From positions 1 through 37,236 of the IMG/VR virus record IMGVR_UViG_3300033146_007131: a DNA stretch of 37,236 bases; one strand, given 5' to 3'. The stretch's first letter is position 1; the number at the start of each line of letters is the position of its first letter. Position numbers and translations under genes: made by a program. The notes beneath the pieces were generated by a model that worked only from the letters and a program-made list of their open reading frames with translations, was not told the DNA's origin and did not search any database. Source of the stretch: a virus. Below are positions 5,161-32,493 of the stretch, piece by piece.

Positions 5161-5562
5161 TTAATAAGTTAATAAAAGCTTATCTGTTATTTTATTTTTT
5201 ATTTTTTTGCCTTTATTTTGAAATCTTTTCAGCATTGACTTACCACAGCTGATATCTATTTTTTGTTTAAATATGCTTTGTTCTATATATTTATTATATT
5301 CATTATCTTTTTTACCATCTACGCTCAAAGCTATATATATGTTTTTTAGCTTACATTCCTGTATAACATTAATCAATTCTTCAATTTTAAAATTCGGAGA
5401 TCCATATAATATTGATTGTGAATTTTTATAGGGTGGATCACAATATATAAAATCATATGGTTTAGCGTTTAGCATTATATCTTTATAATCAGAGCATTTA
5501 AATATCGTATTTTGTATTTTTTTGTGCCACAAATCTACTCTTTGTGAAAAACTATTAGATGA
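5161..5562 (-). pseudogene. dam: Dam-type adenine methylase, C-terminal fragment
   Basis: This frame holds the second half of a class D12 (Dam/DpnM-like) N6-adenine methyltransferase. It starts in phase at SSNSFSQRVDLWHKKIQNT and contains the catalytic DPPY motif (D178-P-P-Y181 of the rebuilt protein), then an LSVDGKK segment and a basic tail. The first half is at 7380-7787. Joining the codon ending at 7380 to the codon starting at 5562 continues the frame without loss (136 + 133 residues), reading HKPI then SSNSF, as in family members. An ATG inside the IS end (12 nt upstream) could start a 137-residue fragment, but it would lack the AdoMet-binding motif I and be inactive alone. Confidence 0.88.
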
Positions 5563-5720
5563 CATCCTCTCCAAGCTAAAGCATAGGAGTTTCCTATACC
5601 ATTAGAGAAGTCTGACGAATTACTATAAAATAGCTATTCGTTTGGGTTGTGCCACGCAACCTCTATTCCTCAAACAAAGCAAAGCTTCGCTTTCTGGGTT
5701 TACTTTTCTTATTATATTTA
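5563..5720 (-). ncRNA. Probable omegaRNA (right-end guide RNA of TnpB), approximate limits
   Basis: In IS200/IS605 elements the RNA that guides TnpB is transcribed across the 3' end of tnpB and the right end, and its guide comes from the flanking DNA. Here that region covers the last codons of tnpB and the non-coding right end with its hairpin. The guide would read into dam from 5562 leftward (starting TCATCTAATAG). The 5' limit is an estimate; only the position and the hairpin support it. Confidence 0.45.
5583..5597. repeat. IS right-end subterminal hairpin
   Basis: ATAGGA (5583-5588), 3-nt loop, TCCTAT (5592-5597). It lies 20 nt inside the deduced right end, where Y1 transposases recognise a hairpin. 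Confidence 0.6.
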
Positions 5721-6846
5721 ATGCTCCATTTACATCTGCATTTAATATATAGCCTCTTGAATCTTTAAATAAACCTCGTCTTATCCTTCTACCTTTATAT
5801 TTAACTTGTTTATTTAAAGCCTCATTATTTAAAAAACTACATTTACTTGTATAACTTTCTTCTGTTACTTTTAGCTCTATTCCATATAATTCACTTAAAT
5901 ATTCTAATTTACTCTTTATCTTATGAAAAGGCAACTGTACAAAATTCTGATTATTTACTTTTCCTATTTTTATCTTATTTTTCCAAAACTCATTATAACC
6001 TAATACTATTTTTCCTATCTTGTTTTTTAAACAATGATTTATTACTATTCTTACTGCTTTGGAAATATAATCTTGTATTCTATTATTCCTTTTATGAGTT
6101 ATATATTGTATCTTTTTACTTTTTCCTTTTTTGATCTTTGATTTATATTTACTTACTTGTTTGTTATAATATTGGTTTATTGATTTTATTTTCCGTCCAT
6201 CTATAATAATAGATGACCCATTATTTTCTACACAAGTTAATAAATTATTTAAACCTAAATCTATTCCTAATATTTTTTCATTATCCAAACCTAACTCTAT
6301 TTTATCTTGAACTTCATATATATATTCTAATTCAAAATATAAACCATCCAATATTGGGTTCAATCTCACTTGCTTTATTTTTTTATCTAAAATTGTTTTT
6401 GGTATTTTTACTTCTAAACAAAATTTATTTTCTTTTTTATATTGTCTTGATAAAGGTAATTTAAATACTCCATTTTTAATACAACTACTATCTCTAAAAA
6501 TTAACTGGAATAAACCATTGATATCTTTATATTTTGGTAGCTTTACTTTTTTATCATATTGCCCTTTCTTCTTTTTTCTCTTTACTTCGAAAAAAGAAGA
6601 AAAATTATCATTTACTTTTTTTATTACTTGTTGAGCAATTCCAGCTTGCAAAAGTTTAAAATTTTCATTTGTTTTAGCTAAAGAACAATTATTAGCATAA
6701 GATAAAAATTGTTTATTATTAAAAAAATATTGTCTAACATTGTAAAGAGCAACATTATATAGGTTTTTAGAGAAGAAACAAAGTTCTTTAAGCTTTTTAT
6801 ATTGTTTTTTCTTTAATTTAAGTTGTTGTTTACAAGTAAGAATCAT
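5623..6846 (-). CDS. tnpB: TnpB, RNA-guided nuclease of the IS200/IS605 element
   Basis: TnpB of this family is an RNA-guided DNA endonuclease related to Cas12 that helps keep the element at its donor site. From the ATG at 6846 it has 407 residues. RuvC motifs: GIDLGLNN with D196 and NADVNGALN with D371. The second acidic residue is unclear: the usual place reads VLGYNEFWK (E286), while TEESYTSK offers E329/E330, as in a subgroup with a rearranged site. The zinc-finger region is reduced to SKCSFLNNE with one cysteine. I chose 6846 over 6891 because AAAGG precedes it and it follows the tnpA stop by 1 nt. The C-terminal RNRGCVAQPKR segment overlaps the guide RNA region. Confidence 0.92.
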   Translation of the reverse strand: MILTCKQQLKLKKKQYKKLKELCFFSKNLYNVALYNVRQYFFNNKQFLSYANNCSLAKTNENFKLLQAGIAQQVIKKVNDNFSSFFEVKRKKKKGQYDKKVKLPKYKDINGLFQLIFRDSSCIKNGVFKLPLSRQYKKENKFCLEVKIPKTILDKKIKQVRLNPILDGLYFELEYIYEVQDKIELGLDNEKILGIDLGLNNLLTCVENNGSSIIIDGRKIKSINQYYNKQVSKYKSKIKKGKSKKIQYITHKRNNRIQDYISKAVRIVINHCLKNKIGKIVLGYNEFWKNKIKIGKVNNQNFVQLPFHKIKSKLEYLSELYGIELKVTEESYTSKCSFLNNEALNKQVKYKGRRIRRGLFKDSRGYILNADVNGALNIIRKVNPESEALLCLRNRGCVAQPKRIAIL

Positions 6847-6847
6847 A

Positions 6848-7261
6848 TTATTTACCTTTTTGATTTTCAATATATTTTTTAACAGTTTCAAGAGAGACAG
6901 AACCGACTGATGAAATAAATCTAGCTCTAGTCCAAAGACAAGGTAGTTTTTTAGTAAGAGATGGGAATATTTCTCTCATTTTACGAGATGAGAAACCTTT
7001 AATCTTAGTAACAGTTTCATATATAGACACTTTAGGTGAATTAGAAATAAGAATATGAACATGATCTTCCATAACTTCAATTTCAATAAGTTTAAACTTA
7101 AATTTACCTTGTATAGATTTAATAATATGTTTAAGTTCATCTTGCATAATAGGATCTAAAACACTTCGTCTATATTTAGTAGTCCATATAACATGATATT
7201 GGCAAGAGAAAACGATATGTTTGTCTCGTTCATATATCTTGTGTGTATTAGTTATATTCAT
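6848..7261 (-). CDS. tnpA: TnpA, Y1 HUH transposase of the IS200/IS605 element
   Basis: This 137-residue single-strand transposase cuts and joins the hairpin-marked ends through a 5'-phosphotyrosine. It carries the HUH motif in MEDHVHILIS (H67, H69) and the catalytic tyrosine Y130 in VKKYIENQ. The FSCQYHVIWTTKYRR start and the full length are typical of the family. I chose the ATG at 7261 (MNITNTHK) because AAAGGATATAATA precedes it; the frame is open up to 7312. It overlaps nothing and is directly followed by tnpB. Confidence 0.95.
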   Translation of the reverse strand: MNITNTHKIYERDKHIVFSCQYHVIWTTKYRRSVLDPIMQDELKHIIKSIQGKFKFKLIEIEVMEDHVHILISNSPKVSIYETVTKIKGFSSRKMREIFPSLTKKLPCLWTRARFISSVGSVSLETVKKYIENQKGK

Positions 7262-7336
7262 TATTATATCCTTTCTTTGATATATATTATTATTTCTATA
7301 TAACGAAGTCAATTTAAAAAAAAATAAAAATTCATC

Positions 7337-7356
7337 CCATAGCCTTTAGGCTATGG
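7337..7356. repeat. IS left-end subterminal hairpin
   Basis: CCATAGCC (7337-7344), loop TTTA, GGCTATGG (7349-7356): a perfect 8-bp stem 23 nt inside the deduced left end. It is the expected recognition hairpin for TnpA. Confidence 0.75.
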
Positions 7357-7379
7357 CTTTCTTTTTATAATGCAAGTAA

Positions 7380-7787
7380 TATTGGTTTATGAACTCCACA
7401 TGGAGTTGACATATAATTATCTTTCTTTCTAAATCTAATTATACCTCCATAACATGAACGACATAAAAAAAGCAAATCTGCTGGATTTGGCTTTTGATTA
7501 TAAGAACTTTTAATTTGCTCATATGCTAATTGATTATTTGATAGAAATAAAAGATATCTATTGTTATACCATGTTTTTAGTTGTTCTGGGTTTATTTTAA
7601 GTTTATTCCATAACTGAATTAATGGCTCTAGTGTGTCAGATGCAATAGCTTTTTTAGGCTCTAATGAAGCTAATATTGCTCTACTACCAAGAAAAGGCTC
7701 ATAGTAGGTATTATATTTCTTAGGAAAATAAGAGATAATCTCTTTTGAAAATCGTTGTTTGTTACCTATCCATTTTAATAATTGCAC
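7380..7787 (-). pseudogene. dam: Dam-type adenine methylase, N-terminal fragment
   Basis: The first 136 codons of the split methylase: LLKWIGNKQRF at the start and the AdoMet-binding motif I YYEPFLGS (E30-S35), a YNQ...LLFLCRSCYGGIIRFR segment, then MSTPCGVHKPI. These are hallmarks of D12-class enzymes that methylate adenine, often in GATC. After I136 the frame runs four codons into the insertion sequence and stops at 7365. Without the DPPY half it cannot catalyse methyl transfer, although a two-piece enzyme is not strictly excluded. It starts 2 nt after the stop of the YpsA-like gene, so the original operon order was ypsA-like, dam, zinc ribbon. Confidence 0.9.
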
Positions 7788-7789
7788 TA

Positions 7790-8320
7790 TTATTCCTTAT
7801 AGTCATCATAAAATTCCTTCATTGGTTTATTTTTTCTCATTGGCAGTATATTAATAGTTTCAACAACTTCATTCATTATATCCATTACAGCGTTTTGTAT
7901 ACCTGGCGATTTTGATTCTCTTGATCCTGCAATATTTAAAGTAACATCTTTAATATTTATTTCTTTTAACCAACGAGATATTGTTCTAACTAACATTTCA
8001 AAACTTAACTTAATATCTATATGAAGATATGGTTTATATTGTTTTTGTGCAAATTTAATAGTTTCCATAGAACCGCCATATGGATTGCCATGTGTAAAAA
8101 CAATAGTAGCATCAGATAATTGCACATTCAATTTTGTTCGAGCAAGATATGATGTGGATATCGTTTCAATTAACTTATACATTTTTGGTATTTTGCCTTT
8201 CTCTGATTTTCTATTTTTAGGGCAATAACCTCCATGATTAATATTATTTTGTATAGCACTATCAAGGCCACCTCTATCTGCTCCAGTTTGACCACCTGAT
8301 ATTATTTTTATTATTTTCAT
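7790..8320 (-). CDS. YpsA/SLOG-like putative nucleotide-binding protein
   Basis: The 176-residue protein opens with KIISGGQTGADRGGLDSAI, the signature of the family annotated as 'putative molybdenum carrier' or cpYpsA-related, part of the SLOG superfamily of Rossmann-like proteins that bind nucleotide-derived ligands. A second conserved stretch reads SDATIVFTHGNPYGGSMETIKFA, and a third LNIAGSRESKSPGIQNAV. Length is normal and nothing is missing. It is the first gene of the minus-strand operon, behind the promoter at 8357-8384. SLOG proteins occur in systems sensing or cutting nucleotides in phage-host conflict, so a defence or counter-defence role is possible but inferred. Confidence 0.85.
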   Translation of the reverse strand: MKIIKIISGGQTGADRGGLDSAIQNNINHGGYCPKNRKSEKGKIPKMYKLIETISTSYLARTKLNVQLSDATIVFTHGNPYGGSMETIKFAQKQYKPYLHIDIKLSFEMLVRTISRWLKEINIKDVTLNIAGSRESKSPGIQNAVMDIMNEVVETINILPMRKNKPMKEFYDDYKE

Positions 8321-8892: not shown

Positions 8893-9150
8893 ATGCAAAA
8901 CAAATATTCGCCTGATGATTTAATTTGTCCAGGAGCGACATTAAAGGAATATCTTATTTCTGCAAATTTAAATATAGAAAAATTAGCTAGATTAATTGAT
9001 CTTGATATTGATATTATTATGTTAATTTTAAGTGGTGAAAAAAGAATAACAGAAAAAATAGCTTTAAAGTTGGTAAAAGTTTTTTCAATGCCTGTTAGTT
9101 TTTGGTTGAATCTTGAAAATAATTATCAAAGATTAAAGCATGGAGGTTAA
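8893..9150 (+). CDS. HigA-like HTH (XRE-type) protein
   Basis: An 85-residue helix-turn-helix protein resembling HigA antitoxins: PGATLKEYLISANLNIEKLARLIDLD, then the recognition helix region and RITEKIALKLVKVFSMPVSFWLNLENNYQ, where the FWLNLENNY end is characteristic. It probably binds DNA and represses its own cassette. AAGGGGGAG precedes the ATG. The upstream partner is not a recognisable HigB, so this could be a stand-alone repressor, an orphan antitoxin or half of an unknown pair. The next gene starts 2 nt after its stop. Confidence 0.82.
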   Translation: MQNKYSPDDLICPGATLKEYLISANLNIEKLARLIDLDIDIIMLILSGEKRITEKIALKLVKVFSMPVSFWLNLENNYQRLKHGG

Positions 9151-10985: not shown

Positions 10986-12014
10986 ATGAGTAAAGATTTA
11001 TCAGGATCTTATAGTTTAAATGATCTTTTTAGTTCTTCAAATATGCAAGTCGTTTCAAAAGATCCAATTCAAGATAATAAAAAAGCTGAATTTATTAATA
11101 AAAATAATAGTACAATTAAAATACAGCAAAAAAGACGACAAAGATCAATAAACCAAACATTAAAAAAAGACTTAAAAAAAGCTAAAAATCCGATGAATAG
11201 TCATATACCACCTAGCTTATTTAAGTCAAAGCCTTTAAATATTAAGTTAGAAAAACGAGTAGTAGAAGAATCTACTACGGAGGTATTGCATCGTTTAGGA
11301 CAATTAACTGAAACAGCTCAAAAGATTGTGGCTAAAAAAATGTTAGATAATAAAATAGATTATACAAAGCCTTTGTCACGTCAAGTTATGTCAACCAAAC
11401 GAGCAAATAAGGATTTTGTTAATAAAAGACGACGTACGGTTGCTGAACTATTAAATTATGGAATGGTTGCTGCACAAATATCAGAAGCTCTTGATGTATC
11501 AATTTCGGCAATAAATAAAGATATACATGTTATTAGGCATGGTAAAAATAAAGAAGGAAAAGAAGTAGGTGATAGTATTTTGGCTTCATATGACAAAATG
11601 TTAGCTGATTTAACGGTTGAATATATTACTGCTGATGAGGCTTCTAAACCTAAGATTATTAATTCGAAAATGAGAACATTAGAGTCTAAATGGAAATATA
11701 TGTTAATTACAGGTATGATTAGAAAGAAAAAGGCTGGTGCTTTGATAGCAGGTAAAGATTTAGCTAAAATGTCTGCAACTGAATTAACAAATACACTGAA
11801 GAATATAAAAAAAGATACTGAAAATATACAAGTTGACAAAAAAAGATCTTCTCAAAGTGATTTAGATGTTCAGAATGGTGAAGTTAAAAGACTTTTTAAT
11901 AAACCAAAAGTTGAAATACCCAATTTCCTTTTAGAAAAAGATACAGATATTATTGAAGATATCGAAAGTATAGAGGCTGAAATTAAGGATCTTAATGATG
12001 TTGGGGTAAGTTAA
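10986..12014 (+). CDS. Probable terminase small subunit
   Basis: A 342-residue protein whose stop overlaps the large terminase start by one base (TAATG), the standard place for the DNA-recognition subunit. The first ~100 residues are charged and probably disordered. The centre carries a helix-turn-helix (RRTVAELLNYGMVAAQISEALDVSISAINKDI, about residues 143-175), followed by a helical oligomerisation-like region and an acidic C-terminal tail (DTDIIEDIESIEAEIKDLND). It is longer than the usual ~150-200 residues, mostly in the flexible ends. AGGAGAAG precedes the ATG. Assigned by HTH and gene order; no specific family recognised. Confidence 0.72.
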   Translation: MSKDLSGSYSLNDLFSSSNMQVVSKDPIQDNKKAEFINKNNSTIKIQQKRRQRSINQTLKKDLKKAKNPMNSHIPPSLFKSKPLNIKLEKRVVEESTTEVLHRLGQLTETAQKIVAKKMLDNKIDYTKPLSRQVMSTKRANKDFVNKRRRTVAELLNYGMVAAQISEALDVSISAINKDIHVIRHGKNKEGKEVGDSILASYDKMLADLTVEYITADEASKPKIINSKMRTLESKWKYMLITGMIRKKKAGALIAGKDLAKMSATELTNTLKNIKKDTENIQVDKKRSSQSDLDVQNGEVKRLFNKPKVEIPNFLLEKDTDIIEDIESIEAEIKDLNDVGVS

Positions 12015-14311
12015 TGGATAGTGATGAAATTGAAAAAAATCAACTAATTAATTTAATTAAAGTTCAGGATGAGTTAATGAGGCGTGAGGGATATACTGAT
12101 CCTTCTACGTTTGGTTTACCAGATTTGTTGTTTCCAATGAATACTTATCCAGCTACACTTGAGCGTTTAGATAATGGTCTTTATAAAAAAAATAAACGTA
12201 AATTGTTAGAAAAAGATGAAACTCGTGGCGAGTATCGTTACAGGAGATATCAAGAGTTAAAAAAGTTCCTTGAAAAAAAATTACATATTCAAAAGGATGG
12301 TAGAATTGAAAAGCTTAGAATTGTTGATCCTGTATTAGAGTTTTTAGGTGATATCTTTTTTGGATATATACGTAGAGCTATTTTATGGAAAAATAGAGGT
12401 GGTGGTGGTTCTCTTGCTGCTGCTATCGTGATGTGGCTAAGAATGGTATGGCAAAATCAAAGCTGGATGGATATGGCTGGTTGTTTGTTACCAAGCACAG
12501 AAGTATATATTAAAGAATTAAAAAATTATATTCCTGTAAGGTGTGTACAGGAAGGATATCATGTTTGGACTTTAACAGAAGAGTGGCGAAAAATAAAAAG
12601 AGTCATAAAAAGAAGTGGTGAATATATGGCTTATCAAATCAAGCCATTTGGCTCTATTATTAATACTTTTACAGAAGATCATTTAATTGCGGTTGTTAGC
12701 TGTCTTGAACGTGATTTTCAGGGCAATATCGTTAATGTTGATATTGAACATTGGGATTCATTGGATATTATATGGAAAGATGCTTGTTTGGTTAATCCAG
12801 ATATAGATACAGTTATAATTGGTAAATTAGATAAATTCCCTGGTAAGAAAATAAAATCTAATGGATGTGCTGGTAAAAATGGTAGATGGGATGGCAAGGA
12901 TAGAACTTATGTTTCAATTGCAATGTTTGATCACTTTGAATATGTTGGTGATGTTTACGATTTAACTGTTGATAGCGAGCCGTTCTTTCTTTGTCGCGAT
13001 ATGACAGTACATAATAGTCAAGAGCAGGCAAAACAGGTTTATGAGTATACTACTCAGTTCTGGGATTGTTTTCCTTTTATGAAGAAAACTCTTTTACCTA
13101 ATGATACTCAAGTTTCTTTAACTAAATTAATAACAGGTGTAACGTTAAGATGTGTTACTAGTACTGAGAAATCAGCGAGATCAAAACATCCACCTGGCTT
13201 ATGTATGGATGAAGTTTGTCAGGATAAAGAGGGAATAGATACAGTTTTCAGATCAGCAATGGGAGCTTCATTAACAGAGCCTAATTCAACAATTATTGCA
13301 CTTTCTACTTTCCATATACCAGTAGGTTTATTTCAAGAGATGTGGGATCATGCTGGCAAATTAGGATTTAGAAGATACACTTGGTCAACGTGGGATATTA
13401 TGGAGCATTGTTCTGAAGGTATGGATTGTGCTACTGATAAAGATCCATATGCTTATAGCTTTTGTTTAAAGTATTGTCCTTTAACAGAGCAAATAGATGA
13501 AGCTGTGCATTCACCTGATGGAATGATTACTAAAAGAAAATATATTGGATGTAGAGGTCAAGCAAGACATACTAATGGTTTCAGGAAAAGAGCAGTTGTC
13601 ATTGCTGCTAAAGCTGCAAGTGGTAAAAACTTTTTAGTTGAATGGGAAAACAGTAGACCAACAATACCTGGTTCAGTTTATGATATTAATGATGTTACTT
13701 ATGCTGAAAAAGCAGAATTTGAATTACCTGATAAAGATCCAATATTAGTTCATGTCGGTATTGACTGGGGATTTAATGAAGGCTGTATGTGTGTCATAAT
13801 GCTTTATGAAGAGGGTATTTTTATTCCAGAGGCAGAGTTTATGAACTTTAAGACTGTTTCTGAGTGTATTGTTATTCTTGAAAAATGGAGAAGTTATTAT
13901 ACTAATTATAATAAAGATGATAGCTTAGGTAAAGATATTTGTGTATATGCTGATGCATCTCATCCTTTTAATAATAATGATTTACATGAAGCTGGCTTTG
14001 AAACTGTTCCTGTAGATTTTGGTGGAGTAAAAGATTATGGGCTTTTTAATGTTGCAAAATATCTTGAAAATGGTCGTTTAAATATTAATGGTGATTTATA
14101 TAAATTTTTAAGACAAATTAAAGAATATAGAAATAATAAAAAAACAGGAAAACCTATTAAAAAAAATGACCATGCTCCTGATTCAATGCTGGCAGGCATG
14201 GTAGAGCTTGACTATGATGAACTTTTTGGACCTAATTCAAACATTAAATATATTCGAGAAAATGGTGATAAAAAACCTGATTCAAGTAACGATAAAGTAT
14301 TAATTTTTTAA
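12014..14311 (+). CDS. Terminase large subunit (ATPase-nuclease) with mini-intein
   Basis: The motor that pumps and cuts phage DNA. The precursor has 765 residues; removal of the intein (157-334) would give 587. ATPase: a Walker A-like NRGGGGSLAAA at 127-137 with G132 where lysine is expected, the DMAG/SQEQAK motif now split by the intein, and Walker B LCMDEV with D399/E400. Nuclease (RuvC-like): D584 in VGIDWGFNEG, D647 in YADASH and D719/D723 in NDHAPDSM. It overlaps the small terminase gene by one base. After its stop comes an A/T-rich stretch and a promoter. Assignment by motifs and order is firm; motor activity despite the altered Walker A is inferred. Confidence 0.92.
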   Translation: MDSDEIEKNQLINLIKVQDELMRREGYTDPSTFGLPDLLFPMNTYPATLERLDNGLYKKNKRKLLEKDETRGEYRYRRYQELKKFLEKKLHIQKDGRIEKLRIVDPVLEFLGDIFFGYIRRAILWKNRGGGGSLAAAIVMWLRMVWQNQSWMDMAGCLLPSTEVYIKELKNYIPVRCVQEGYHVWTLTEEWRKIKRVIKRSGEYMAYQIKPFGSIINTFTEDHLIAVVSCLERDFQGNIVNVDIEHWDSLDIIWKDACLVNPDIDTVIIGKLDKFPGKKIKSNGCAGKNGRWDGKDRTYVSIAMFDHFEYVGDVYDLTVDSEPFFLCRDMTVHNSQEQAKQVYEYTTQFWDCFPFMKKTLLPNDTQVSLTKLITGVTLRCVTSTEKSARSKHPPGLCMDEVCQDKEGIDTVFRSAMGASLTEPNSTIIALSTFHIPVGLFQEMWDHAGKLGFRRYTWSTWDIMEHCSEGMDCATDKDPYAYSFCLKYCPLTEQIDEAVHSPDGMITKRKYIGCRGQARHTNGFRKRAVVIAAKAASGKNFLVEWENSRPTIPGSVYDINDVTYAEKAEFELPDKDPILVHVGIDWGFNEGCMCVIMLYEEGIFIPEAEFMNFKTVSECIVILEKWRSYYTNYNKDDSLGKDICVYADASHPFNNNDLHEAGFETVPVDFGGVKDYGLFNVAKYLENGRLNINGDLYKFLRQIKEYRNNKKTGKPIKKNDHAPDSMLAGMVELDYDELFGPNSNIKYIRENGDKKPDSSNDKVLIF
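12482..13015 (+). mobile_element. Mini-intein inside the large terminase
   Basis: A 178-residue protein intron. It begins at Cys157 (CLLPSTEVYI, block A), has a block B TxxH (TEDHLIAV), a block F-like VYDLTVDSEPFFL and ends TVHN with the next residue Ser335 (block G, penultimate His, Asn334, +1 Ser). All residues for the standard splicing pathway are present. It is too short for a homing endonuclease; the middle shows no LAGLIDADG or HNH motif. The exteins rejoin as DMAG-SQEQA, a conserved terminase segment. Confidence 0.93.
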
Positions 14312-29914: not shown

Positions 29915-30505
29915 ATGGCAGGAACAGATTTAAAAGGCGGAAGACCCGATATTTTACGTGGATTTAGATATAATGTATCTATTACACCTGAAGGTGAAAA
30001 ATCTATTGGGACTTTAGGGTTTTCAAAAGTATCAGGGTTAAACTTGGGAACCTCGGATGTAATTGAATATAGAGAAGGTAACGAGCGTGTATCACCTCGA
30101 AAAATACCAGGTTTAAATAAATTTGATAATATAACTCTTGAACAGGGTAGGGCTTTAAGCGACACAGGAACAGCATTAGCTGATTGGCGAGCAGCAGTTG
30201 TGTGGGCTGAAGGTGGCAAAGGCGGTTTTTCGCCAGATGGTAAAAGATTCGGACTACAATATTTTGATTATAAAAATTATCGTGCTTCAATGAGAATACA
30301 GCTCATTAATAGAAATGGAAAACCATCTGTTGAATGGCAAATAGATAAAGCATGGCCAATATCTTTAAAGTTTTCAGATTTAGATGGAAATACTTCTGAT
30401 GTATTGATTCAAACTTTAGAGATTGCAACTGAAGGTATTCAAGAAGTTGTTGGTTATACGCGGACTTCTTCAGAAGCAACTTCAGGAAGTGCAATTACAA
30501 AATGA
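29915..30505 (+). CDS. Tail tube protein (T4 gp19-like), paralogue 1
   Basis: Inner tube subunit of the contractile tail. It carries the family core ILRGFRYNVSI, FSKVSGLNLGTSDVIEYREG, PRKIPGLNKFDNITLEQG and ends with WPISLKFSDLDGNTSDVLIQ and LEIATEGI. At 196 residues it is close to normal. The most standard of the four copies and next to the sheath, so it is the likely main tube protein. Its start depends on the hairpin at 29871-29903. It shares about 100 nt of near-identical sequence with the copy at 31969. Confidence 0.92.
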   Translation: MAGTDLKGGRPDILRGFRYNVSITPEGEKSIGTLGFSKVSGLNLGTSDVIEYREGNERVSPRKIPGLNKFDNITLEQGRALSDTGTALADWRAAVVWAEGGKGGFSPDGKRFGLQYFDYKNYRASMRIQLINRNGKPSVEWQIDKAWPISLKFSDLDGNTSDVLIQTLEIATEGIQEVVGYTRTSSEATSGSAITK

Positions 30506-30540
30506 TTTCTATTGTTAATAAAATCATATTATGATAAAAT

Positions 30541-30561
30541 CCACTACCTTTATGGTAGTGG
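30541..30561. repeat. Small hairpin CCACTACC-TTTAT-GGTAGTGG
   Basis: An 8-bp stem with a 5-nt loop between tube paralogues 1 and 2, followed by AAAATTT rather than a T-run. It matches the hairpin at 3653-3669 in stem core and loop. It may protect the tube mRNA 3' end or reduce readthrough into paralogue 2. Confidence 0.6.
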
Positions 30562-30628
30562 AAAATTTAATATTAGCGTAATAGAGGTTTGGTTATAAAA
30601 ATTTTTAAATTTAGGTTTTATATATTTT

Positions 30629-31372
30629 ATGATTTTACGTAAACATGATATATCCAGAGCATATAAATTTAGAGTTTTAATTCCTAGAAGTAGTTATGAT
30701 GATACTTTTTATGATAGTGAAGCAGCAGAAGGTAGACATAAAGCTATTAATAAAGGTATAGATTCATATGCTAACAATATGATGTCAAGTGATAGATGGT
30801 CAAGATTTTCAGAAAGAGAAAAAAGAAATTTTAGAATAATAGTTAAAAATATGCGTTCACGAGCTTGGAGAAATTCAGATGAAGGGGAAAGAATAGCTTC
30901 AAATACTTATGATATAGGTTTCTCAAAGGTTTCTGGATTAACAACTGGTCAATGTGATATTATGACATATAGGAATGGCTATGATAAACTTGATTATCAT
31001 AAAGAACCTGGTTTAGTAAAAGTAAAAAATATAATACTTGAAAGAGGTTTTGCAGTTCAAGATGCTTTTGAATTTATGTTTGCTTGGCATCGTCATACAA
31101 TGTTTAATATGGATGAAAAATTAGATATAGGTGAACAGGTAAAGAGGCCACAAGATGTTGGTTATAATCCTGATTTTGAAGATAATGACAGTACTTATTT
31201 TATGAGAAATATACGAATATCATTATATGACAGATTAGGTAGAACTAAAACTTCTTGGTCTTTATCTAATGTATGGCCAATAGAATTAGAATTTTCAGAT
31301 TTAGATTCTATGGATTCTAAAGTAATAATAGAACGAATGGTTTTATCGGTGCATGGTATAGATATTAATTGA
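30629..31372 (+). CDS. Tail tube-family protein, paralogue 2 with N-terminal insertion
   Basis: Belongs to the gp19-like family by ISRAYKFRVLI, YDIGFSKVSGLTTGQCDIMT, YHKEPGLVKVKNIILERG and WPIELEFSDLD. At 247 residues it is longer because a charged ~80-residue insert (about 16-95: SSYDDTFYDSEAAEGRHKAI, REKRNFRIIVKNMRSRAWR) lies in the first loop. It is the most diverged copy. Such variants may sit at a tube end or contact the baseplate. The ribosome site is weak (TTTAGG about 14 nt upstream), suggesting low output. Confidence 0.82.
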   Translation: MILRKHDISRAYKFRVLIPRSSYDDTFYDSEAAEGRHKAINKGIDSYANNMMSSDRWSRFSEREKRNFRIIVKNMRSRAWRNSDEGERIASNTYDIGFSKVSGLTTGQCDIMTYRNGYDKLDYHKEPGLVKVKNIILERGFAVQDAFEFMFAWHRHTMFNMDEKLDIGEQVKRPQDVGYNPDFEDNDSTYFMRNIRISLYDRLGRTKTSWSLSNVWPIELEFSDLDSMDSKVIIERMVLSVHGIDIN

Positions 31373-31380
31373 GGTAACTA

Positions 31381-31887
31381 ATGGCAAAAGGTATTGATAT
31401 TTTACGAGCATTTAAATATAGAGTAACGATAGTTGAAACAAAAGGTAGTAATAGTAGCATATTGGGTTTTTCAAAGATATCAGGTTTGACTCTTGGGGCT
31501 TCGGATGTGATTGAATATAGAGAAGGTAATGAAGGTCCTTTTTTTCGAAAACTTCCTGGTTTACATAAGTATAAGAATGTTATATTGGAAAAAGGAAAAG
31601 GAAGTGATGCAGATATCCTTGAAATGGAAAGATGGAGAGATCAAGTTTCTTATTATAGATCAAATATAAAAGTAACAGATAAGGATGGATATGGGACTGT
31701 TTATTATTATAAGACTATCAATATTGCATTATATTCTAGGTCTGGAGATATTAAATTTGAATGGGTATTACATAATGCTTGGCCTACAAGTATTGATTAT
31801 AGTGATCTTGATGCTCAAACATCATCATTTTTAATAGAAACAATAGATATTGCATATGAAGGTGTTGAGATAATCCGTCATAAGTAA
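31381..31887 (+). CDS. Tail tube-family protein, paralogue 3
   Basis: A 168-residue gp19-like protein: ILRAFKYRVTI, LGFSKISGLTLGASDVIEYR, RKLPGLHKYKNVILEKG, AWPTSIDYSDLD. It lacks insertions. It starts 8 nt after paralogue 2 with GAGG at good spacing, so these two are co-translated. Probably an initiator, cap or baseplate-adaptor ring rather than the bulk tube, by analogy to systems with several tube proteins. Confidence 0.85.
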   Translation: MAKGIDILRAFKYRVTIVETKGSNSSILGFSKISGLTLGASDVIEYREGNEGPFFRKLPGLHKYKNVILEKGKGSDADILEMERWRDQVSYYRSNIKVTDKDGYGTVYYYKTINIALYSRSGDIKFEWVLHNAWPTSIDYSDLDAQTSSFLIETIDIAYEGVEIIRHK

Positions 31888-31968
31888 AAATTTTTTCTAT
31901 TAAAATTGATATATTATTAATTTTTTGTTATTATATTTGAAATAAAACGATTTTAACAAGGGAAAATT

Positions 31969-32493
31969 ATGCCTACTTTAAGAAGTAATAGTTATGATCC
32001 ATTAAGAGATTTTAGATTTATTGTTAGTTTTCCTGGTGAAAAAGCTCAAAGTAGACAAGATATTAAACTTGGTTTTTCAAAAATATCAGGATTAAATTTA
32101 GGAACATCAGATGTAATTGAGTACAGAGAAGGTAATGAAATTATTTCACCTCGAAAAATACCAGGTTTAAACAAATATGATAATATAACTTTTGAAAGGG
32201 GACGTGCTAATGATCCTGGGAATACTTTTTTTTTAGAAGATTGGCGTGAAAAAGTTGCCCACCATAAAGGTGGTTATAAAGGTAATTCTCCAGATGGAAT
32301 AAACAAGTCATCTACATTTTTTAGGAAAAAAATTAGTGTTAGCGTTGTGAATCGTGATGGTCATGTTGCAACGAAATTTGTTTTATATGATGCATGGCCA
32401 GTAAGTTTAAAGTATTCTGATCTTGATAGTCAAAATTCTGGGTTATTAATTTCAACATTAGAAGTTGCAATTGAAGGTCTTGTGGTTTTTTAA
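31969..32493 (+). CDS. Tail tube-family protein, paralogue 4
   Basis: A 174-residue gp19-like protein, closest to paralogue 1 (FSKISGLNLGTSDVIEYREG, PRKIPGLNKYDNITFERG, AWPVSLKYSDLD). CAAGGGAAAA precedes the ATG. The high similarity to paralogue 1 at DNA level suggests recent duplication or gene conversion. The 81-nt gap before it has TTGATA-17-TATTAT at ~31907, a possible weak promoter. Role inferred as tube, tube end or adaptor. Confidence 0.87.
   Translation: MPTLRSNSYDPLRDFRFIVSFPGEKAQSRQDIKLGFSKISGLNLGTSDVIEYREGNEIISPRKIPGLNKYDNITFERGRANDPGNTFFLEDWREKVAHHKGGYKGNSPDGINKSSTFFRKKISVSVVNRDGHVATKFVLYDAWPVSLKYSDLDSQNSGLLISTLEVAIEGLVVF

What the first reader, a model, noticed from the sequence alone, without database searches (positions are those of the whole stretch)
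5161..7787. Dam methylase split by an IS200/IS605 element; excision restores the gene exactly
The methylase motif I half (7380-7787) and the DPPY half (5161-5562) flank a complete tnpA-tnpB element. Removing 5563-7379 joins codon 136 to codon 137 in frame, reading HKPI-SSNSF as the family expects, with no duplication. The inserted copy should be methylase-deficient, so a phage population may switch between modified and unmodified DNA as the IS moves. The exact scar gives the element's ends and target motif, (CC)AATA(T).
Basis: partly seen in the sequence, partly recalled or inferred. Interest (0 to 1): 0.75.

Follow-up and report, generated by a model that had tools for sequence, protein, structure and literature searches.

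The report
Phage methylase gene split by transposon
A common "peel-and-paste" jumping gene (an IS608-like IS200/IS605 element) has landed inside a phage DNA-methylase gene and cut it in two without losing or adding a base; this is ordinary for the family, but the element's RNA-guided nuclease should be aimed at uninterrupted copies of that same gene.

Summary
A D12-class (Dam-family) adenine methylase is split by a complete tnpA-tnpB IS200/IS605 element in an uncultivated phage record, and taking the insert out leaves one open frame of 269 codons plus stop. The length across the join equals that of nine intact relatives. The element is 5559-7375 (1817 bp), inserted 3' of TTAC, not at (CC)AATA(T). 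The empty site reads TTAC|C and HKPI-LP-NSF, not HKPI-SS-NSF. Five features fix this: the IS608-type guide AAAG at exactly +16..+19; the right-end pair TCAT/GAAA, equivalent to TCAA/GAAT; a right-end geometry equal to a viral relative's; C at +1, which IS608 prefers; and, of 121 slid positions, only this one meets both pairing rules. TTAC occurs once on the gene's sense strand. The methylase is closest to BclI-type enzymes, so its site may be TGATCA rather than GATC. Free on/off switching is not shown and is made less likely by TnpB: its guide RNA should come from the dam flank and should cut or re-invade restored copies. No empty-site allele was found. This is a new member of a well-known kind.

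The parts
7376..7787 (-). 5' part of the methylase gene (GTG start at 7787; FLGS motif I region and target-recognition region), ending in the target TTAC (7379-7376)
   Evidence: Pfam MethyltransfD12 profile 1-132, E 8e-20; alignment to intact relatives
5161..5558 (-). 3' part of the methylase gene (DPPY motif IV, C-terminus, stop); its first bases CTAATAG follow the element's right end and are the predicted start of the TnpB guide
   Evidence: Pfam MethyltransfD12 profile 145-241, E 2.5e-10; join checked
5559..7375 (-). IS608-like IS200/IS605 element, 1817 bp, no target duplication
   Evidence: Both ends obey the IS608 guide/cleavage pairing rule, and no other offset within +-60 nt does; rule from PMC5934647
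7376..7379 (-). Target / left cleavage site TTAC (also the predicted TnpB TAM)
   Evidence: Only TTAC between 7340 and 7440 and the only sense-strand TTAC in the rejoined gene; relatives L030-L032, L003 and L004 share TTAC|
7357..7360 (-). Left guide AAAG at +16..+19
   Evidence: Identical to IS608 GL in sequence and position
7337..7356 (-). Left-end hairpin CCATAGCC-TAAA-GGCTATGG, immediately 3' of the guide
   Evidence: DNA folding
6848..7261 (-). tnpA, Y1 single-strand transposase, 137 aa
   Evidence: Y1_Tnp E 2.5e-38; best solved homologue IS608 TnpA, 2vhg/2a6m, E 6e-31
5623..6846 (-). tnpB, RNA-guided nuclease family, 407 aa
   Evidence: NCBIfam guided_TnpB E 1e-57; profile match to ISDra2 TnpB structures 8h1j/8bf8
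5590..5593 (-). Right guide GAAA
   Evidence: Pairs with TCAT by the rule by which GAAT pairs with TCAA
5569..5589 (-). Right-end imperfect palindrome CTCCTATGCTTTAGCTTGGAG, 21 nt
   Evidence: Same length and 6-nt spacer to the cleavage site as in viral element L004
5559..5562 (-). Right cleavage site TCAT
5559..5720 (-). Probable TnpB guide RNA (reRNA/wRNA) scaffold, overlapping the 3' end of tnpB and the right end
   Evidence: Inferred from family anatomy; RNA fold z -2.29; only a sub-threshold Rfam hit, HgcC E 0.13

Best explanation
An IS608-like IS200/IS605 element (5559-7375) inserted as single-stranded DNA by TnpA immediately 3' of the only sense-strand TTAC in a phage solitary D12-class m6A methylase gene (empty site TTAC|C), splitting it between the target-recognition and DPPY parts. 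The inserted allele should make no working methylase. TnpA can peel the element out during replication and leave an intact gene. The TnpB guide RNA ends in the right-flank methylase sequence (CTAATAGTTTTTCACA...), so TnpB should cut TTAC-flanked uninterrupted alleles in the same cell, including those of co-infecting sister phages, and the element be copied back in. Shown here: the split, the ends, the target, the intact reading frames and the restored length. Inferred from family knowledge: excision, guide RNA, cutting and homing.
For: Both halves in one Pfam family at consecutive ranges, with Y1_Tnp and OrfB_IS605 between them. Rejoined frame 269 aa, above the NCBIfam dam cut-off. Same length across the join in nine intact relatives. 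TnpA closest to IS608 TnpA among solved structures. Three Caldicoprobacter copies with different flanks all run TTAC|...AAAG-hairpin...GAAT-hairpin...TCAA|. IS608 rule: TTAC/AAAG at +16..+19, TCAA/GAAT, about 70% TTAC|C (PMC5934647). Window obeys it at both ends at one offset only out of 121. Viral element L004 has the same right-end geometry. TnpB guide from the right flank and TAM = target: PMC8612924. Gene drive of IS200/605 in plasmids: PMC11870625.
Against: No uninterrupted allele of this phage and no second copy of the element was found, so neither the ends nor mobility are shown by direct comparison. No empty-site reads could be examined. TnpB lacks the canonical RuvC-II glutamate (N285) and may use the alternative position E330, so its nuclease activity is assumed. 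No Rfam family passes its threshold over the guide-RNA region.
Confidence: 0.9

Rival explanations
1. A reversible on/off switch: excision and re-insertion of the element serve as phase variation of phage DNA methylation.
For: Exact excision restores the frame; tnpA, tnpB and both ends look intact.
Against: Any IS200/IS605 insertion has this property, so it is no sign of selection for switching. The site is a TTAC|C chosen by guide pairing and codes for variable residues. TnpB would bias towards the inserted allele. None of 80 viral loci with related methylase genes carries an IS605 gene. No intact allele found.
Confidence: 0.07
2. The two halves are made separately and complement each other, so methylation persists (split methyltransferase).
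For: The 3' half has an in-frame ATG at 5565 within the element's right end, with GGAG upstream; the break lies between the target-recognition part and the DPPY part; both halves keep most family-invariant residues (36/40 and 33/41).
Against: The GGAG-ATG spacing is very short and this sequence is explained by the right-end palindrome. The 3' half has lost 8 of 41 residues invariant in the others, although intact L109 is similar (33/40).
Confidence: 0.06
3. The insert is an IStron: a group I intron splices it out of the mRNA, so the gene still works.
For: IStrons of IS605 type exist (PMC4227781).
Against: Only about 115 nt separate the left end from tnpA, too short for a group I intron; no Rfam intron match, even at relaxed threshold.
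Confidence: 0.01
4. An old, dead insertion in a gene already lost.
For: Eight of 41 invariant residues changed in the 3' half and four of 40 in the 5' half.
Against: No stop or frameshift in either half, in tnpA or in tnpB; catalytic motifs kept; an intact relative differs as much.
Confidence: 0.1

Closest known systems
IS608 (ISHp608) of Helicobacter pylori, IS200/IS605 family
   Same: Y1 TnpA (best solved match), TTAC target, AAAG left guide at +16..+19, hairpins at both ends, TTAC|C preference, no target duplication, tnpA followed by tnpB
   Different: Right cleavage/guide pair TCAT/GAAA instead of TCAA/GAAT; sits in a phage methylase gene; TnpB seems to belong to a subfamily with a moved catalytic glutamate
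ISDra2 TnpB-reRNA (PMC8612924) and TnpB gene drive in plasmids (PMC11870625)
   Same: TnpB family; guide expected from the right flank; TAM expected to equal the insertion target
   Different: Activity not tested here; replicon is a phage; catalytic glutamate probably at the alternative position
BclI-type methylases (pBcl1 of B. caldolyticus NEB414; plasmid homologues; viral contigs L115-L121)
   Same: D12-class m6A methylase, 44-52% identity, same length across the join
   Different: Several relatives sit beside a conserved restriction-enzyme-like gene; none is present in the window, so this one is solitary
IStrons (PMC4227781)
   Same: IS605-type element inside a gene
   Different: No group I intron here

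Membership tests
IS200/IS605 family, IS608-like | Y1 (HUH) single-strand transposase | tested here: met
IS200/IS605 family, IS608-like | Insertion 3' of a short target with no duplication; target retained on the left | tested here: met
   Frame and length restored, TTAC retained; no empty-site allele available
IS200/IS605 family, IS608-like | Guide tetranucleotides 5' of both end hairpins that pair with the cleavage sites | tested here: met
   AAAG/TTAC and GAAA/TCAT; sole offset of 121 meeting both
IS200/IS605 family, IS608-like | Excision and transposition activity | not testable with these tools
   needs an assay or reads
RNA-guided TnpB nuclease | TnpB fold with RuvC D-E-D triad | tested here: inconclusive
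   Family model passed and ISDra2 TnpB matched; D196 and D371 conserved, canonical E replaced by N285, E330 invariant at the alternative position; AlphaFold confidence low there
RNA-guided TnpB nuclease | reRNA/wRNA over the right end | tested here: inconclusive
   Structured (z -2.29) but no Rfam family at threshold
D12-class (Dam-family) adenine methylase | Motif I region and DPPY motif, family profile | tested here: met
   solved homologues DpnM 2dpm and E. coli Dam
Dam with GATC specificity | Methylates GATC | not testable with these tools
   Nearest characterised neighbour is from the BclI (TGATCA) strain; GATC 96 seen/115 expected and TGATCA 8/12.8 in the window, not decisive
IStron | Group I intron at the left end | tested here: not met

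The most novel reading that the evidence does not exclude
A phage-borne RNA-guided gene drive: the element's TnpB, programmed by its own insertion in the methylase gene, cuts the intact methylase allele of co-infecting sister phages, so that loss of a modification gene spreads through a phage population against its own cost, unlike intron or intein homing, which spares the gene.
Probability: 0.3. Interest if true: 0.55.

Novelty: new member of a known kind. Interest (0 to 1): 0.3.

Why it matters
It is a clean natural case in which the element's ends, its target and the predicted TnpB target (the intact methylase allele) can be read from one sequence. It would let one test whether TnpB homing, shown or proposed in bacteria and plasmids, also drives an insertion through a phage population at the cost of a phage gene. 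As an insertion it is ordinary.

Tried and rejected
Scans for relatives of the capsid and terminase in viral contigs gave none, so the host and close phage relatives are unknown; megablast of 20 kb against phages gave none. Single-sequence scans for the methylase and TnpA found few relatives; the alignment-based scan found intact methylases at 44-52%. The empty-site pattern allowing both junction versions found nothing. Residues at the join do not separate LP from SS: relatives read HP, SP, PP, PV, ST, SS. The minimum-energy DNA fold of the right end is a different hairpin; the guide-adjacent palindrome was preferred because it matches L004 and the pairing rule. Group I intron rejected. TnpB structure model (pLDDT 77.8, pTM 0.51) was too poor around residues 288-301 and 333-354 to place the alternative glutamate.

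Full report
What is there. The window is an IMG/VR virus record of 37,236 bp, a linear fragment with no host genome attached. On the minus strand two pieces of one D12-class adenine methylase flank a TnpA and a TnpB: the upstream piece matches MethyltransfD12 positions 1-132, the downstream piece 145-241. Removing 1817 bp gives one open frame of 269 codons plus stop that passes the NCBIfam dam cut-off and matches solved DpnM and E. coli Dam.

Where the ends are. The ends were therefore sought from the family's mechanism. TnpA's best solved match is IS608 TnpA. In IS608 the left cleavage site TTAC pairs with guide AAAG at +16..+19, the right site TCAA pairs with guide GAAT, and about 70% of insertions fall at TTAC|C (PMC5934647). 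Three copies of a relative in Caldicoprobacter oshimai with unrelated flanks all run TTAC|...AAAG-hairpin...GAAT-hairpin...TCAA|, and viral elements L003 and L004 begin TTAC| followed by an AAAG-hairpin.

In the window the only TTAC near the left end (7379-7376) has AAAG at exactly +16..+19 and a hairpin from +20. The length-conserving right end is then TCAT| at 5562-5559; its guide by the pairing rule must be GA-any-A, and GAAA lies directly 5' of a 21-nt imperfect palindrome with a 6-nt spacer, the same geometry as L004's GAAT-21-6-TCAA. The empty site is TTAC|C, and the gene's sense strand has no other TTAC. So the element is 5559-7375, the target is TTAC, and the restored residues are HKPI-LP-NSF.

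The gene. Nine intact relatives have the same number of residues across the join: plasmid enzymes of B. caldolyticus NEB414, C. glutamicum and B. methanolicus, and six viral contigs, L115 and L117-L121. NEB414 is the BclI source and methylates TGATCA (PMC5805893); assigning that activity to the pBcl1 gene is inference. The plasmid relatives and viral L118 and L121 carry a homologous restriction-enzyme-like gene next to the methylase; the window has none, so this is a solitary methylase. GATC specificity is therefore uncertain. GATC is only mildly below expectation in the window (96 against 115) and TGATCA too (8 against 12.8).

How it probably works. Each half lacks an essential motif, so the inserted allele should be inactive (inference). 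TnpA should peel the element out of one strand during replication and restore the gene. TnpB's guide RNA is made from the right end plus about 16 nt of flank, its required motif equals the insertion target, and it is proposed to cut the emptied site so that the element is copied back (PMC8612924). Here that target is the intact methylase gene itself. TnpB-driven spread of IS200/605 elements through plasmid populations has been reported (PMC11870625). The same logic in a phage population would favour the interrupted allele rather than free switching. None of this activity is shown here.

Caveat on TnpB. The position of the usual RuvC-II glutamate is asparagine (N285, in GYNEFWK, against IIGTEHLK in ISDra2). 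Seven related proteins share an invariant E330 in the motif E-x-YTS, which corresponds to the alternative glutamate described for some TnpBs and Fanzors (PMC10711439); the zinc-finger cysteines are mostly gone. The structure model is not good enough there to test this. A structured RNA is predicted over the right end (z -2.29), with only a sub-threshold Rfam hit (HgcC, E 0.13).

What was not found. No intact allele of this phage, no second copy of the element in the record, no IS605 gene in 80 viral loci carrying related methylases, no group I intron, no close phage relatives.

Verdict. A real and well-defined insertion of a known kind; 'exact restoration' is what the family always does. The correction of the ends and the reversal of the expected direction (TnpB defends the insertion) are the useful results.

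Noticed in passing
12014-14311 (+): The large terminase subunit appears to hold an intein between about residues 157 and 334 (GCLLPSTEVY...VHNS); Pfam Intein_splicing is below its cut-off (21 against 35.8 bits), and terminase profiles match only after it.
   Followed up: partly
5623-6846 (-): TnpB with the canonical RuvC-II glutamate replaced (N285), an invariant alternative E330 and a degenerate zinc finger, shared by six viral-contig relatives.
   Followed up: partly
L118:3816-4730, L121:1-951: Viral contigs carry a complete BclI-type methylase next to a gene homologous (42% and 35%) to the putative restriction enzyme of plasmid pBcl1: possible phage-borne restriction-modification pairs.
   Followed up: partly
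29915-32493 (+): Several paralogous tail-tube-like genes in a row; the two tested match the same PHROG (phrog_4542).
   Followed up: no
7790-8320 (-): Circularly permuted YpsA-type SLOG protein directly upstream of the methylase, PF12694 E 2e-47.
   Followed up: no
8893-9150 (+): HTH protein resembling plasmid antitoxins (phrog_1381), with no partner toxin identified.
   Followed up: no
5563-5574 (-): The element's right end supplies an in-frame ATG (5565) and TTG (5574) with GGAG to the 3' half of the methylase.
   Followed up: partly
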